DNA of 64,000 nucleotides from Shinella zoogloeoides (lineage in GTDB: Bacteria; Pseudomonadota; Alphaproteobacteria; Rhizobiales; Rhizobiaceae): assembly GCF_003574625.1 (NCBI RefSeq), contig NZ_QNUJ01000001.1:1-64000 (forward strand), in the 5' to 3' direction. A model generated the notes under the pieces. It saw only the letters and a list, made by a program, of their open reading frames with translations, was not told the origin of the DNA and did no database searches. The translations under genes and the position numbers were made by a program. This document shows, piece after piece, positions 3,003 through 44,967 of the stretch (positions within the stretch are counted from its first letter, which is position 1; every line of letters starts with the position of its first letter).

Positions 3003-3033
3003 TTGACGCATTTTTTACCTCGTCTACTATATC
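3003..3033 (+). promoter_or_regulatory. Sigma-70-type promoter for the nrd leader
   Basis: TTGACG (3003-3008) and CTATAT (3027-3032) are separated by 18 bp. The predicted start lies about 7 bases downstream, right at the 5' base-paired arm of the cobalamin riboswitch. Confidence 0.6.
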
Positions 3034-3039
3034 TTGTGT

Positions 3040-3230
3040 TCGAGGTTCCTTCGATTCGAAAGGATGGAAGGCTAAGACGGGAATCCAGGGCGGCCATGAT
3101 GGCCGCGTCAATCCGGAGCTGCCCCCGCAACTGTAAGCGGCGAGCATTCGTTCGATGAGCCACTGGGGCGTAAATGCCTTGGGAAGGCGGACGGATGCCG
3201 CGACCCGCAAGCCAGGAGACCTGCCTCGAG
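3040..3230 (+). ncRNA. Cobalamin riboswitch upstream of nrdHIEF
   Basis: All the classical B12-element blocks appear in order: GGTTCC, GCTAAGACGGGAATCC, GGAGCTGCCCCCGCAACTG, GTAAGCGGCGAGC, GCCACTGGGG, TGGGAAGGCGG and the B12 box GCAAGCCAGGAGACCTGCC (3207-3225). The closing stem P1 pairs TCGAGG (3040-3045) with CCTCGA (3224-3229). This RNA class binds adenosylcobalamin and usually switches the downstream genes off. Here it precedes a B12-independent ribonucleotide reductase, which fits the known logic that such isozymes are repressed when B12 is available for a class II enzyme. Confidence 0.95.
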
Positions 3231-3334
3231 CATGAACGTCCACGGGCGGGGTGTCCGGATGGCGAGCGTTGGGTTGTGCAGGATGCCGCCCGCCGTCTCC
3301 CCTGATCCCCCGCGAAATGCCTCGGGGTGAAGTC

Positions 3335-3719: not shown

Positions 3720-4118
3720 GTGGGGGGCCTCGTCTATTTTTCCAGCCGGTCGGAGAACACCCGGCGCTTCGTGGAAAAGCTCGGGGTCGAGGCCCTGCGC
3801 CTGCCGCTCGACGCAGCCGGTGAAGCCCCGCAGGCCGACCGGCCCTTCGTCCTGGTTTCGCCGACTTATGGCGGGGGCGGGGAGAAGGGGGCGGTGCCCA
3901 AGCCCGTCATCCGCTTCCTCAACAATCCGCGCAACCGCAGCCTGATCCGCGGCGTCATCGCGGCGGGCAACACCAATTTCGGCGCCGGATATGCCGTCGC
4001 GGGAAACATCATCTCCGCGAAATGCGCGGTGCCGTTCCTCTACCGTTTCGAGCTGCTCGGCACGGTAGAGGACGTCGACAATGTCAGACAGGGACTGGAA
4101 CGATTTTGGACACGATGA
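3720..4118 (+). CDS. nrdI: Class Ib RNR flavodoxin NrdI
   Basis: A 132-residue flavodoxin-like protein needed to load the dimanganese-tyrosyl cofactor of NrdF. It shows the NrdI pattern [18 protein letters not shown] at the start, SPTYGGGG in the FMN-binding loop and [15 protein letters not shown] near the middle. It starts with GTG 3720, preceded by GAGGAGAAGG. Its TGA (4116-4118) overlaps the ATG of nrdE in an ATGA junction, indicating translational coupling. Confidence 0.95.
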
Positions 4119-6319
4119 ACGCTTCGACGCCGCGGGATGCGAGCGAAAAACCGCCTCACGCTTTTTCTCATCCCGCGGGAGATAAGCCGGCGAAGGCCCC
4201 GGAGATCACCGCGCTGGATTACCACGCGCTGAACGCCATGCTGAACCTCTACGACGAGGAGGGGAAGATCCAGCTCGACAAGGACCGGCAGGCGGCCAAG
4301 CAGTATTTCCTCCAGCACGTCAACCAGAACACCGTCTTCTTCCATAATCTCAGGGAGAAGCTCGATTACCTCGTGACCGAGGGCTATTACGAGCAGGAGG
4401 TGCTGGACCAGTATTCCTTCAACTTCGTGCGCGACCTCTTCGACCACGCCTATGACAAGAAGTTCCGCTTCCCGACCTTCCTCGGCGCGTTCAAGTACTA
4501 CACGTCCTATACGCTGAAGACCTTCGACGGAAAGCGCTATCTCGAACGCTACGAGGACCGCGTCTGCATGGTGGCGCTCGCTTTGGCGCGCGGCAACGAG
4601 CAGCTTGCCCGCGACCTCGTCGACGAGATCATCTCCGGCCGCTTCCAGCCGGCGACCCCCACCTTCCTCAATGCCGGCAAGAAGCAGCGCGGCGAACTCG
4701 TCTCCTGCTTCCTGCTGCGCGTCGAGGACAACATGGAGAGCATCGGCCGCTCGATCAATTCGGCCCTGCAGCTTTCCAAGCGCGGCGGCGGCGTCGCGCT
4801 GTCGCTGACGAACCTTCGCGAGATGGGCGCCCCAATCAAGCAGATCGAGAACCAGTCGTCGGGCGTCATCCCCGTGATGAAGCTGCTGGAGGATTCGTTC
4901 TCCTACGCCAACCAGCTCGGTGCGCGGCAGGGAGCGGGGGCGGTCTACCTGCACGCCCACCACCCGGATATCATGCGCTTCCTCGACACCAAGCGCGAGA
5001 ATGCCGACGAGAAGATCCGCATCAAGACGCTCTCGCTCGGCGTCGTCATCCCGGACATCACCTTCGAGCTCGCGAGGAACAATGAGGACATGTACCTCTT
5101 CTCGCCGCATGACGTGGAGCGCGTCTACGGCGTGCCTTTCACCGAGATCTCAGTGAGCGAGAAGTATCGCGAGATGGTGGAGGACGGCCGCATCAAGAAG
5201 AAGAAGATCAAGGCGCGCGATTTCTTCCAGATCATCGCCGAGATCCAGTTCGAGTCCGGCTATCCCTACATCATGTTCGAGGACACGGTGAACCGGGCGA
5301 ACCCGATCGCCGGCCGCATCACCATGAGCAATCTCTGCTCGGAAATCCTCCAGGTGAGCGAGGCGAGCGAATTCAACGACGACCTCTCCTATGCCAAGAT
5401 GGGCAAGGACATTTCCTGCAATCTCGGCTCGCTCAACATCGCCGCCGCGATGGACAGCTCCGATTTCGGCCGGACCATCGAGACCTCGATCCGTGCGCTG
5501 ACCGCCGTTTCCGAGATGAGCCACATCTCCTCGGTTCCCTCGGTCGAGAAGGGCAATGACGACAGCCACGCCATCGGCCTCGGCCAGATGAACCTGCATG
5601 GCTATCTCGCCCGCGAGCGCATCTTCTACGGTTCGGAAGAGGGCGTCGATTTTACCAATATCTATTTCTACACCGTGACCTACCACGCCATCCGCGCCTC
5701 CAACCGGCTGGCGGTGGAAAAGGGCGTCAGCTTCAAGGGCTTCGAGAATTCGAAATACGCTTCCGGCGAATACTTCGACAAATATACCGAGGCCGAATGG
5801 CTGCCGGCGACGGAAAAGGTGAGGGCGATCTTCGAGGAGGCCGGCATCCATATTCCGACGCAGGAAGACTGGCTGGAGCTGAAGACGGCCGTCATGGAAG
5901 GCGGGCTCTACAACCAGAACCTCCAGGCCGTGCCGCCGACCGGCTCGATCTCCTACATCAACCACTCGACCTCCTCGATCCACCCGATCGTCTCGAAGAT
6001 CGAGATCCGGAAAGAGGGCAAGATCGGTCGCGTCTACTATCCGGCCGCCTTCATGACCAACGACAATCTCGACTACTACCAGGACGCCTACGAGATCGGA
6101 CCGGAGAAGATCATCGACACCTATGCGGCGGCGACCCAGCATGTCGACCAGGGCCTGTCGCTGACGCTGTTCTTCCGCGACACCGCGACGACGCGCGACA
6201 TCAACCGGGCGCAGATCTACGCCTGGAAGAAGGGCATCAAGACCATCTACTACATCCGCCTTCGCCAGATGGCGCTGTCCGGCACGGAAGTGCAGGGCTG
6301 CGTCTCCTGCGCCCTCTGA
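4115..6319 (+). CDS. nrdE: Class Ib ribonucleoside-diphosphate reductase alpha subunit
   Basis: The 734-residue catalytic subunit that reduces NDPs to dNDPs. Visible family features are [16 protein letters not shown] around the first active-site cysteine, NLCSEILQ with the thiyl-radical cysteine region, [29 protein letters not shown] in the barrel and a C-terminal GCVSCAL tail with the CxxC pair that NrdH reduces. The start is ATG 4115 inside the nrdI stop; the longer open frame upstream overlaps nrdI and is not conserved-looking. nrdF follows after 15 bp. Confidence 0.97.
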
Positions 6320-7324
<1,005 letters not shown>

Positions 7325-44122: not shown

Positions 44123-44146
44123 CTGCTTCGTTAATGAAACCTTACT

Positions 44147-44171
44147 CACCCATGCATCCACTGCATGGGTG
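44147..44171. other. Perfect hairpin between the aminotransferase and the DUF1127 gene
   Basis: CACCCATGCA (44147-44156) pairs with TGCATGGGTG (44162-44171) around TCCAC. No T tract follows. It may be a weak terminator or part of the DUF1127 leader. Confidence 0.5.
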
Positions 44172-44284
44172 ACGTGCCAGCTTCGCGCTTTTCCGCAGCG
44201 CAGCATGACGGTACAAGGCGGCCATCGAAAGACGCGGCGCCACGGACCGGTGCCGAACAGAGAGCCCTACGAAAGGGGATCATC

Positions 44285-44431
44285 ATGAACATGGCACGTT
44301 CCTTCAACAATTGGCGCAAGTACCGTCAGACCGTCAACGAACTCGACCGCATGTCCGCTCGCGAACTGCGCGACCTCGGCATCGAGCGTTCGGAAATCAA
44401 GGCTGTCGCCCGCGCCGCCGTCGGCTTCTGA
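44285..44431 (+). CDS. DUF1127 small protein
   Basis: A 48-residue basic protein, MNMARSFNNWRKYRQTVNEL then DRMSARELRDLGIERSEIKA, the complete DUF1127 signature (W-R ... L-x-x-MS-x-RELRDLGI-R-x-I). DUF1127 proteins in alphaproteobacteria are small, stress-linked and reported to bind RNA or affect phosphate and carbon metabolism; in Rhodobacter one (CcaF1) is co-transcribed with CCUCCUCCC-loop sRNAs. The same arrangement occurs here. ATG 44285 follows GAAAGGGGATC. Confidence 0.95.
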   Translation: MNMARSFNNWRKYRQTVNELDRMSARELRDLGIERSEIKAVARAAVGF

Positions 44432-44454
44432 CCGACGCCGCAAGGCAAGATTTC

Positions 44455-44485
44455 AAAAACGCCCGCCTTCCGGCGGGCGTTTTTG
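44455..44485 (+). terminator. Rho-independent terminator after the DUF1127 gene
   Basis: AAAAACGCCCGCC (44455-44467) pairs with GGCGGGCGTTTTT (44472-44484), ending in a T run 24 bp after the stop codon. The sRNA array begins 130 bp further on. Confidence 0.93.
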
Positions 44486-44614
44486 CATGTGCGAACGAAT
44501 CACCTCGGCGAGACTTAATTCAACGGAATTGAGATATACGTTACGCGCATAACGCATAGCTGCATTGCAAAACGGTGCCTATGAAATAATCAGGAATCGG
44601 ATATAGTCACACTT

Positions 44615-44772
44615 ATCGAAGCAACGTACCTCCTCCCACGAAGCTTCGATGGATGCAGAAGGCCTACTCCTCCTCCTCCCAGGGCCGACTGCGGGAATGA
44701 CGACACTCCTCCTCCCAGTCGTCATTCGGTTCTATCGGAAAGCCTGCCGCACCTCCTCCCGCGGCAGGCTTT
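44615..44772 (+). ncRNA. Cuckoo-type sRNA array: four hairpins with CCTCCTCCC loops
   Basis: Four consecutive stem-loops each expose CCUCCUCCC. (1) ATCGAAGC 44615-44622 / GCTTCGAT 44643-44650, inner CGT/ACG, loop ACCTCCTCCC. (2) GCAG 44655-44658 and GGCC 44661-44664 / GGCC 44683-44686 and CTGC 44689-44692, loop with CCTCCTCCTCCC. (3) GAATGACGAC 44695-44704 / GTCGTCATTC 44718-44727. (4) AAAGCCTGCCGC 44739-44750 / GCGGCAGGCTTT 44761-44772. Stems differ in sequence while loops are constant. This matches the 'cuckoo' RNA family (CcsR1-4 of Rhodobacter), whose loops carry an anti-Shine-Dalgarno-like motif and which are often beside DUF1127 genes. Confidence 0.93.
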
Positions 44773-44875
44773 TCCGCTTCTGGACCTGAATTTTCTCAAA
44801 AGAACAGTTCGAACGCTGGCGGGCCGGGCTTGGCGGATGTGCCCCTGCTCTCCGTCATTATGCCTATATCTCCGT

Positions 44876-44910
44876 CGTCATGCTCGGGCTTGACCCGAGC
44901 ATCCATCCTG
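44876..44910. repeat. Rhizobial-type short palindromic repeat, copy 2
   Basis: CGTCATGCTCGGGCTTGACC with an internal perfect palindrome GCTCGGG (44882-44888) / CCCGAGC (44894-44900). A degenerate copy is at 38001-38031. It lies between the sRNA array and the end of the ParA-like gene. Confidence 0.65.
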
Positions 44911-44967
44911 TCGGTAGAGGCAGGTGCAGGAGCGTGGAAGGCGGGGACGCCGGAAAGAAGCGGTGCC

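What the first reader, a model, noticed from the sequence alone, without database searches (positions are those of the whole stretch)
44615..44772. Four-hairpin CCUCCUCCC ('cuckoo') sRNA array downstream of a DUF1127 gene
The sequence shows four adjacent stem-loops with unrelated stems but the same CCTCCTCCC in every loop, which implies selection on the loop. Cuckoo RNAs (CcsR1-4 in Rhodobacter) have this layout and sit beside a DUF1127 gene; there they were reported to respond to stress and affect C1 metabolism. A locus with the same plan in a Rhizobiaceae-like genome carrying several C1 genes nearby invites comparison. The loop is complementary to GGGAGGAGG, so ribosome sites are natural targets. 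In this window the omega-aminotransferase site (GGGAGGAG) and the rhaR site (GAGGAGGAG) are near-complementary.
Basis: partly seen in the sequence, partly recalled or inferred. Interest (0 to 1): 0.85.

Follow-up and report, generated by a model that had tools for sequence, protein, structure and literature searches.

The report
Four-hairpin anti-ribosome-site RNA beside DUF1127
This stretch encodes a small regulatory RNA of a known rhizobial family, with four hairpins that each expose the same ribosome-site-blocking loop, next to a tiny DUF1127 protein gene; it looks real and well conserved but is of a known kind, and both genes carry what looks like the same switch for the regulator LsrB/VtlR.

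Summary
Four stem-loops with unrelated stems and one shared CCTCCTCCC loop lie at 44613-44776, downstream of a 48-aa DUF1127 gene. Hairpins 2-4 are an Rfam alphar14 sRNA (94.1 bits, cut-off 58.8). All four loops occur in 20 of 20 same-genus genomes searched (Shinella, inferred), and the stems covary (25 of 47 pairs change on both sides; 0 of 500 shuffles as high). Three- and four-hairpin relatives (NfeR1, SmelA099) are published: a new member of a known kind. Best mechanism: a trans-acting RNA whose loops mimic the anti-Shine-Dalgarno sequence and block ribosome sites, probably of transport and metabolism genes. The comparison with Rhodobacter CcsR holds for loops and neighbour, not for wiring: an intrinsic terminator separates DUF1127 from the array in 20 of 20 genomes, and no RpoH-like promoter stood out. 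Instead both units carry the published LsrB/VtlR box (DUF1127 20 of 20, array 19 of 20), 48-49 nt before a TATA-like element; 3 of 4 AbcR copies here carry it too. Boldest reading: LsrB/VtlR co-activates both as two units, and the DUF1127 protein is a candidate partner of this RNA. No expression data were available.

The parts
44147..44171 (.). Perfect inverted repeat CACCCATGCA-N5-TGCATGGGTG upstream of the DUF1127 gene; contains TGCA-N6-GCAT, the form of the LsrB site reported in the NfeR1 promoter
   Evidence: sequence; TGCR-N6-GCAT at the same place in 20 of 20 same-genus genomes; published motif from PMC10746234 (passages)
44163..44175 (+). LsrB/VtlR-type box GCAT-N3-TG-N3-T of the DUF1127 promoter (GCATGGGTGACGT)
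   Evidence: 20 of 20 same-genus genomes; TATA-like element 49 nt downstream in 19 of 20; consensus from PMC7486931 and PMC8844928 (passages)
44285..44431 (+). DUF1127 small protein gene (48 aa, stop included in coordinates)
   Evidence: PF06568 E 1.1e-16; the gene is found in 20 of 20 orthologous loci
44455..44484 (+). Intrinsic terminator of the DUF1127 gene (stem + T run)
   Evidence: fold -22.9 kcal/mol; a counterpart in 20 of 20 same-genus genomes
44554..44566 (+). LsrB/VtlR-type box of the array promoter (GCATAGCTGCATT)
   Evidence: 19 of 20 same-genus genomes, always 75 nt before the first loop; TATA-like element 48 nt downstream in 19 of 19
44602..44607 (+). Putative -10 element (TATAGT) of the array; start of RNA inferred at about 44613-44615
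   Evidence: conserved in the alignment; inference, no transcript data; -35/-10 consensus match no better than shuffles
44613..44652 (+). Hairpin 1 (loop CCTCCTCCC 44629-44637), outside the Rfam alphar14 match
   Evidence: fold; helix 1: 94.0% of cells paired, 8 of 13 pairs with two-sided changes
44655..44692 (+). Hairpin 2 (loop CCTCCTCCC 44672-44680)
   Evidence: helix 2: 90.2% paired, 7 of 9 pairs with two-sided changes; not more stable than shuffles by itself
44695..44727 (+). Hairpin 3 (loop CCTCCTCCC 44708-44716)
   Evidence: helix 3: 97.2% paired, 7 of 10 pairs with two-sided changes
44736..44776 (+). Hairpin 4 (loop CCTCCTCCC 44752-44760), G+C-rich, with TTTT in its 3' arm after the G+C stem: also the likely terminator
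   Evidence: helix 4: 94.5% paired, 3 of 15 pairs with two-sided changes; terminator role inferred (the scan did not list it, its loop being longer than 8)
44651..44776 (+). Match to Rfam RF02344 alphar14 (hairpins 2-4), model 1-123 of 123
   Evidence: 94.1 bits, gathering score 58.8, E 6.3e-16

Best explanation
The array is a stand-alone, trans-acting small RNA of about 165 nt: a four-hairpin member of the alphar14/cuckoo family (the SmelA099 type). Each loop presents CCUCCUCCC, a copy of the anti-Shine-Dalgarno sequence, and pairs with strong ribosome-binding sites to block translation of several mRNAs, mainly for uptake and catabolism. The four loops work as redundant or additive copies. 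The RNA has its own promoter and is activated by the LysR regulator LsrB/VtlR bound upstream of the -10 element; the upstream DUF1127 gene is a separate unit under the same regulator. Shown here by sequence: family membership, conservation, covarying stems, a separate terminator, conserved boxes at fixed spacing, a LysR-type gene at an AbcR locus. Inferred: transcription start, identity of that LysR gene as lsrB (by position), LsrB binding, target repression.
For: Rfam alphar14 match. Four loops in 20 of 20 same-genus genomes. On plasmids of Rhizobium, Sinorhizobium, Agrobacterium and a few others 546 records match and 425 cover at least 80% of the query; 10 of the 11 that I fetched have four exact loop cores. 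Covariation: 25 of 47 pairs with two-sided changes, 134 such cells against 43.6 in shuffles, 0 of 500 shuffles reach any of the five measures. Among 107 over-cut-off alphar14 copies in 37 genomes, 32 score as having a fourth 5' loop; 78 have a DUF1127 gene within 1 kb, all 78 on the same strand. The LsrB/VtlR box starts 71-82 nt before the first loop in 48 of 107 (29 of 87 without the 20 orthologs of this locus); 200 permuted motifs give a mean of 0.035 and a maximum of 3 of 107. Positive control: in this genome 3 of 4 AbcR (alphar15) copies carry the box starting 61 nt before the matched RNA start, and a LysR-type ORF lies beside two of the copies; the published LsrB box of S. meliloti abcR1 is at -61 to -49 (PMC8844928, passage). 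Perfect 9-nt sites before an ATG: 17 in the genome, against 5 for the reversed pattern. The 10 ORFs behind such sites that I scanned (of 17) all have a Pfam family; 5 are ABC-transporter parts, in line with the published NfeR1 target class (PMC10746234, PMC7143759, passages).
Against: No expression data. Core promoter hexamers are not better than shuffles and the sigma-70 scan found no site. 59 of the 107 alphar14 copies lack an exact box at that place, and one congeneric array (L122) lacks it. The LysR ORF at the AbcR locus reached no NCBIfam cut-off among the 25 matches shown, so its name rests on position. Complementarity to strong Shine-Dalgarno sites is generic, so target lists are weak. 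Congeneric sequences are closely related, so k-of-20 counts are not independent, and 20 of the 39 aligned arrays are congeneric. In S. meliloti only one of six NfeR1-type copies was reliably detected by Northern blot (PMC7143759), so this copy could be silent.
Confidence: 0.82

Rival explanations
1. CcsR-like operon: the array is the 3' part of one DUF1127 transcript and is cut by RNase E into four separate sRNAs with help of the DUF1127 protein.
For: Same strand and neighbour; this is how CcsR1-4 work (PMC10253847, passages). In other genomes the array follows a DUF1127 match by less than 150 nt (10 of 107 copies), with 0 of 10 having a box between gene and array.
Against: Here 20 of 20 loci have an intrinsic terminator after DUF1127, and the gap of about 180 nt holds a conserved box and TATA-like element.
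Confidence: 0.08
2. A silent or decaying alphar14 copy: family member by descent, with little or no function, the C3 copies doing the work.
For: Three copies over the cut-off in this genome; in S. meliloti one of six copies was reliably detected (PMC7143759, passage).
Against: Four loops, stems and promoter box conserved in the genus, with compensatory changes across 39 arrays.
Confidence: 0.07
3. A small protein or other non-RNA feature (the 46-aa ORF 44649-44789, or a chain of terminators).
For: An ORF is open there.
Against: Spacings between loops differ by single bases between orthologs (36/37), which breaks the frame, and changes are compensatory in stems. Only hairpin 4 has a T run (sequence).
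Confidence: 0.01

Closest known systems
alphar14 family (Rfam RF02344), founding member NfeR1 of Sinorhizobium meliloti
   Same: CCUCCUCCC in every loop, variable stems, LsrB-type promoter motif, over the Rfam cut-off, predicted targets in ABC transport
   Different: NfeR1 has three hairpins and about 123 nt; this array has a fourth 5' hairpin outside the Rfam match and a DUF1127 gene upstream
SmelA099 (four-hairpin sRNA of S. meliloti, 160 nt)
   Same: four hairpins with similar loop motif (PMC3927594 passages), nearly the same length (160 nt in a table of PMC2873474)
   Different: I did not align the SmelA099 sequence itself; a four-hairpin relative on a S. meliloti pSymA plasmid (L181) is 74.5% identical, and no DUF1127 match was found in the 1.2 kb fetched on each side
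Cuckoo RNAs / CIN1 locus with CcsR1-4 and CcaF1 (Rhodobacter sphaeroides)
   Different: there one RpoH-driven operon processed by RNase E; here a terminator between the two and LsrB/VtlR-type boxes before each
AbcR1/AbcR2 (alphar15)
   Same: anti-Shine-Dalgarno RNA, LsrB/VtlR box at similar distance (AbcR1), transport targets
   Different: different RNA family, binds Hfq, two distinct motifs (PMC8844928, passages); AbcR genes are separate loci in this genome

Membership tests
alphar14 (RF02344) | covariance-model score over the gathering score | tested here: met
   94.1 against 58.8 bits
alphar14 (RF02344) | three hairpins, identical CCUCCUCCC unpaired in each loop, divergent stems | tested here: met
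   with one more hairpin upstream
alphar14 (RF02344) | promoter with LsrB-type LysR motif | tested here: met
   box GCAT-N3-TG-N3-T at 44554, the abcR1/VtlR form rather than the TGCA-N6-GCAT form given for NfeR1; binding itself not tested
alphar14 (RF02344) | Hfq-independent transcript that silences mRNAs at the ribosome site (as for NfeR1) | not testable with these tools
   needs RNA and reporter assays
Cuckoo RNA family / CIN1 locus | consecutive hairpins with the shared loop motif, linked to a DUF1127 gene | tested here: met
   the defining paper (Reinkensmeier and Giegerich 2015) is not held, definition taken from passages of PMC10253847 and PMC3927594
CcsR1-4 operon type | co-transcription with the DUF1127 gene | tested here: not met
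   intrinsic terminator between them in 20 of 20 loci; sequence evidence only
CcsR1-4 operon type | RpoHI/RpoHII promoter | tested here: not met
   best RpoH-like match 7 of 13 (array) and 8 of 13 (DUF1127), not above shuffles; a consensus scan only
CcsR1-4 operon type | RNase E processing into four sRNAs with CcaF1 | not testable with these tools
   needs Northern blots in mutants
SmelA099 four-hairpin subtype | four hairpins with the loop motif, about 160 nt | tested here: met
   length inferred (about 165 nt)

The most novel reading that the evidence does not exclude
The locus is a two-promoter LsrB/VtlR module: one regulator switches on a DUF1127 small protein and a four-loop anti-Shine-Dalgarno RNA side by side, and the protein is the missing RNA partner (chaperone or maturation factor) of alphar14 RNAs, whose founder NfeR1 is Hfq-independent. 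It would derive from a single DUF1127-array operon, an arrangement still seen in other genera, by gain of a terminator and a second LsrB promoter.
Probability: 0.25. Interest if true: 0.6.

Novelty: new member of a known kind. Interest (0 to 1): 0.36.

Why it matters
It ties together three published threads that the passages I could read treat apart: LsrB/VtlR activates DUF1127 genes, LsrB activates NfeR1 and AbcR1, and DUF1127 genes sit beside cuckoo RNAs. If the same regulator drives both neighbours, the open question of which chaperone, if any, serves the Hfq-independent NfeR1 kind becomes testable with a simple deletion of the neighbouring gene. It also shows that the Rhodobacter operon model should not be carried over to Rhizobiaceae without checking.

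Tried and rejected
CcsR-like single operon: weakened by the terminator and the separate box. RpoH heat-shock promoter: no site above shuffles; but SmelA075, a three-hairpin relative, was strongly detected after a heat shift (PMC2873474, passage), so heat induction is not excluded. Sigma-70 scan: 0 promoter-like sites in 44130-44960, and the RpoD-type consensus was not above shuffles. Coding ORF across the array: rejected. My first motif guess ([CT]GCA-N5-GCAT) was only partly conserved in the array promoter. The published form GCAT-N3-TG-N3-T was adopted after reading, with the 20 Shinella loci in view, so the 19-of-20 and 20-of-20 counts are not blind. The test on 107 copies includes those 20; without them the count is 29 of 87. 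The AbcR control came afterwards. The test upstream of DUF1127 genes (42 of 75 forward, 19 of 75 reverse) has a noisier control: mean 0.52 but maximum 15 among up to 300 permuted motifs. C1 neighbourhood: one clear gene in 27 frames scanned. I did not run structure prediction or the large protein-homology search, as the question is about RNA.

Papers: the key cuckoo paper and the CcaF1 RNA-binding paper are not held; of the 12 papers that I opened I saw passages only. Search for LsrB, DUF1127, VtlR and cuckoo (10 papers hold at least two terms) lists no paper that holds cuckoo, DUF1127 and LsrB or VtlR at once; (cuckoo, sRNA, Rhizobiales, DUF1127) listed 4 papers. Both cover open-licence papers only, so this is no proof that the joint reading is unpublished.

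Full report
What is there. On the + strand of the window lie a 48-aa DUF1127 gene (44285-44431; PF06568), an intrinsic terminator (44455-44484) and, about 130 nt further on, four stem-loops (44613-44776) that each carry CCTCCTCCC in the loop. The motif occurs 6 times in the window on both strands against 1.11 expected, and 4 of the 6 are these loops. The fold energy of the 176-nt stretch has z = -6.08. Hairpins 2-4 match Rfam alphar14 over its full length (94.1 bits, cut-off 58.8); hairpin 1 is outside that match.

Conservation. The window lies in a Shinella-like genome. One same-genus genome (G017) has a contig as long as a record named Sinorhizobium sp. RAC02, so names are not uniform. All 20 same-genus genomes searched, own included, have the same order: DUF1127, terminator, four loops. 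Across 39 four-hairpin arrays, 20 of them from this genus at this locus, the four helices keep 94.1% of cells paired. 25 of 47 pairs show changes on both sides, 134 such cells against 43.6 in shuffles, and 0 of 500 shuffles reach any measure. Sliding the partners drops pairing to 27-49%. Left out of this alignment were L177 (first loop degenerate), L175 (the same locus in a very near species), and L208 and L223 (two of the 32 copies scored as four-hairpin; in L223 the fourth loop may belong to a neighbouring copy).

Family. alphar14 copies over the cut-off were found in 37 of 61 genomes searched. I examined all 107 such copies: 32 score as having a fourth 5' loop; 78 have a DUF1127 gene within 1 kb, all on the same strand. 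Some flanks were shorter than 1 kb, so 78 is a lower bound. On plasmids, 546 records match the array and 425 cover at least 80% of it. Of 11 plasmid loci that I fetched, 10 have four exact loop cores, 6 have a DUF1127 match in the flank and 10 have the promoter box. Published relatives: alphar14/NfeR1 with three loops, Hfq-independent (PMC10746234, passages); SmelA075 and SmelA099 with three and four hairpins (PMC3927594, passages); CcsR1-4 with the DUF1127 protein CcaF1, the CIN1 locus (PMC10253847, passages). The object is therefore a new member of a known kind.

Wiring. Rhodobacter CcsR RNAs are cut from one RpoH-driven transcript with ccaF1. Here the evidence points to two units. A terminator follows DUF1127 in 20 of 20 loci. 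The published LsrB/VtlR box GCAT-N3-TG-N3-T (PMC7486931 and PMC8844928, passages) occurs in the window exactly twice on the + strand and never on the - strand: once upstream of DUF1127 (44163) and once upstream of the array (44554). It is conserved in 20 of 20 and 19 of 20 loci, 49 and 48 nt before a TATA-like element (19 of 20 and 19 of 19). Over all 107 alphar14 copies the box starts 71-82 nt before the first loop in 48, or 29 of the 87 that are not orthologs of this locus; 200 permuted motifs average 0.035 of 107, maximum 3. As a positive control, 3 of the 4 AbcR copies of this genome have the box beginning 61 nt before the matched RNA start, and a LysR-type ORF (PF00126, PF03466) lies beside two of the copies, where lsrB/vtlR lies in other genomes. 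It reached no NCBIfam cut-off among the 25 best of 55 matches shown. In S. meliloti abcR1 the box is at -61 to -49. The -35/-10 hexamers themselves do not stand out from shuffles.

Arrangements across relatives. Of the 107 copies, 10 follow a DUF1127 match by less than 150 nt and none of these has a box between gene and array; 26 follow at 150-400 nt (23 four-hairpin, 21 with box); 42 have DUF1127 downstream (18 with box); 29 have none within 1 kb (10 with box). For 9 of the 10 close copies I looked upstream of the DUF1127 gene: 5 have a box there, 1 in the forward and 4 in the reverse direction. This suggests, but does not prove, a shift from one LsrB-driven operon to two LsrB-driven units.

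Mechanism. The loop CCUCCUCCC contains CCUCCU, the anti-Shine-Dalgarno core (established knowledge). For NfeR1 the loops silence ntrB and two transporter mRNAs, redundantly (PMC10746234, passages). In this genome 17 sites GGGAGGAGG lie 3-10 nt before an ATG, against 5 for the reversed pattern. Of the 17, I scanned the 10 with the most credible ORFs and left out 7: five reading frames under 60 aa and two long ones of doubtful frame. All 10 had a Pfam family: 5 ABC-transporter parts, an aldehyde dehydrogenase, XdhC, a urate oxidase family protein, CoxG and a xylose-isomerase-like protein. In the window, the aminotransferase and rhamnose-region sites pair with the loop at -18.1 and -13.4 kcal/mol. 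Any strong ribosome site would do so; specificity is unknown, and I tested no enrichment of transporter genes against the genome.

What is new. The passages that I could read link LsrB/VtlR to DUF1127 genes (PMC12595884, PMC7486931), LsrB to NfeR1 and AbcR1 (PMC10746234), and DUF1127 to cuckoo RNAs (PMC10253847), each separately; none of the 10 papers listed holds all three terms. The joint reading, one LysR regulator acting on both neighbours, with the DUF1127 protein a candidate RNA partner, is my inference. CcaF1 binds RNA, whereas no RNA binding was found for Salmonella YjiS, and the Agrobacterium DUF1127 proteins act on the kinase PhoR (PMC12501420, passages), so the partner part is uncertain.

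Noticed in passing
window 3026-3242 (+), with 4022-7324 (+): A cobalamin riboswitch (RF00174, 122.3 bits) lies upstream of ribonucleotide reductase large and small chain genes; it presumably switches this enzyme by B12 supply.
   Followed up: partly
L137 (own genome C3:118300-121300): Two alphar14 copies in tandem are followed by two DUF1127 genes on the same strand; LsrB-type boxes precede the second RNA and the first DUF1127 gene.
   Followed up: partly
window 44667-44680: The loop of hairpin 2 in the window is three bases longer (one extra CTC) than in the 19 congeneric orthologs.
   Followed up: no
L176, L178, L179, L184: On four plasmids, one of them a Ti plasmid, a gene annotated as 3'-5' exonuclease precedes the DUF1127 gene and the four-hairpin array, as if the three travel together.
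   Followed up: no
L147, L150-L154, L223, L225, L228: In other genera the alphar14 match begins 3-148 nt after a DUF1127 match, as in a CcsR-type operon, without a box in between.
   Followed up: partly
own genome C23, C12, C24 (L229-L232): The genome holds four AbcR (alphar15) copies over the cut-off, two of them in tandem beside a LysR-type gene.
   Followed up: partly
L058 (Nostoc sp. XA010 contig, 10.4 kb): A contig labelled Nostoc encodes a protein 82% identical to the window's Rhizobiaceae aminotransferase; probably contamination.
   Followed up: no
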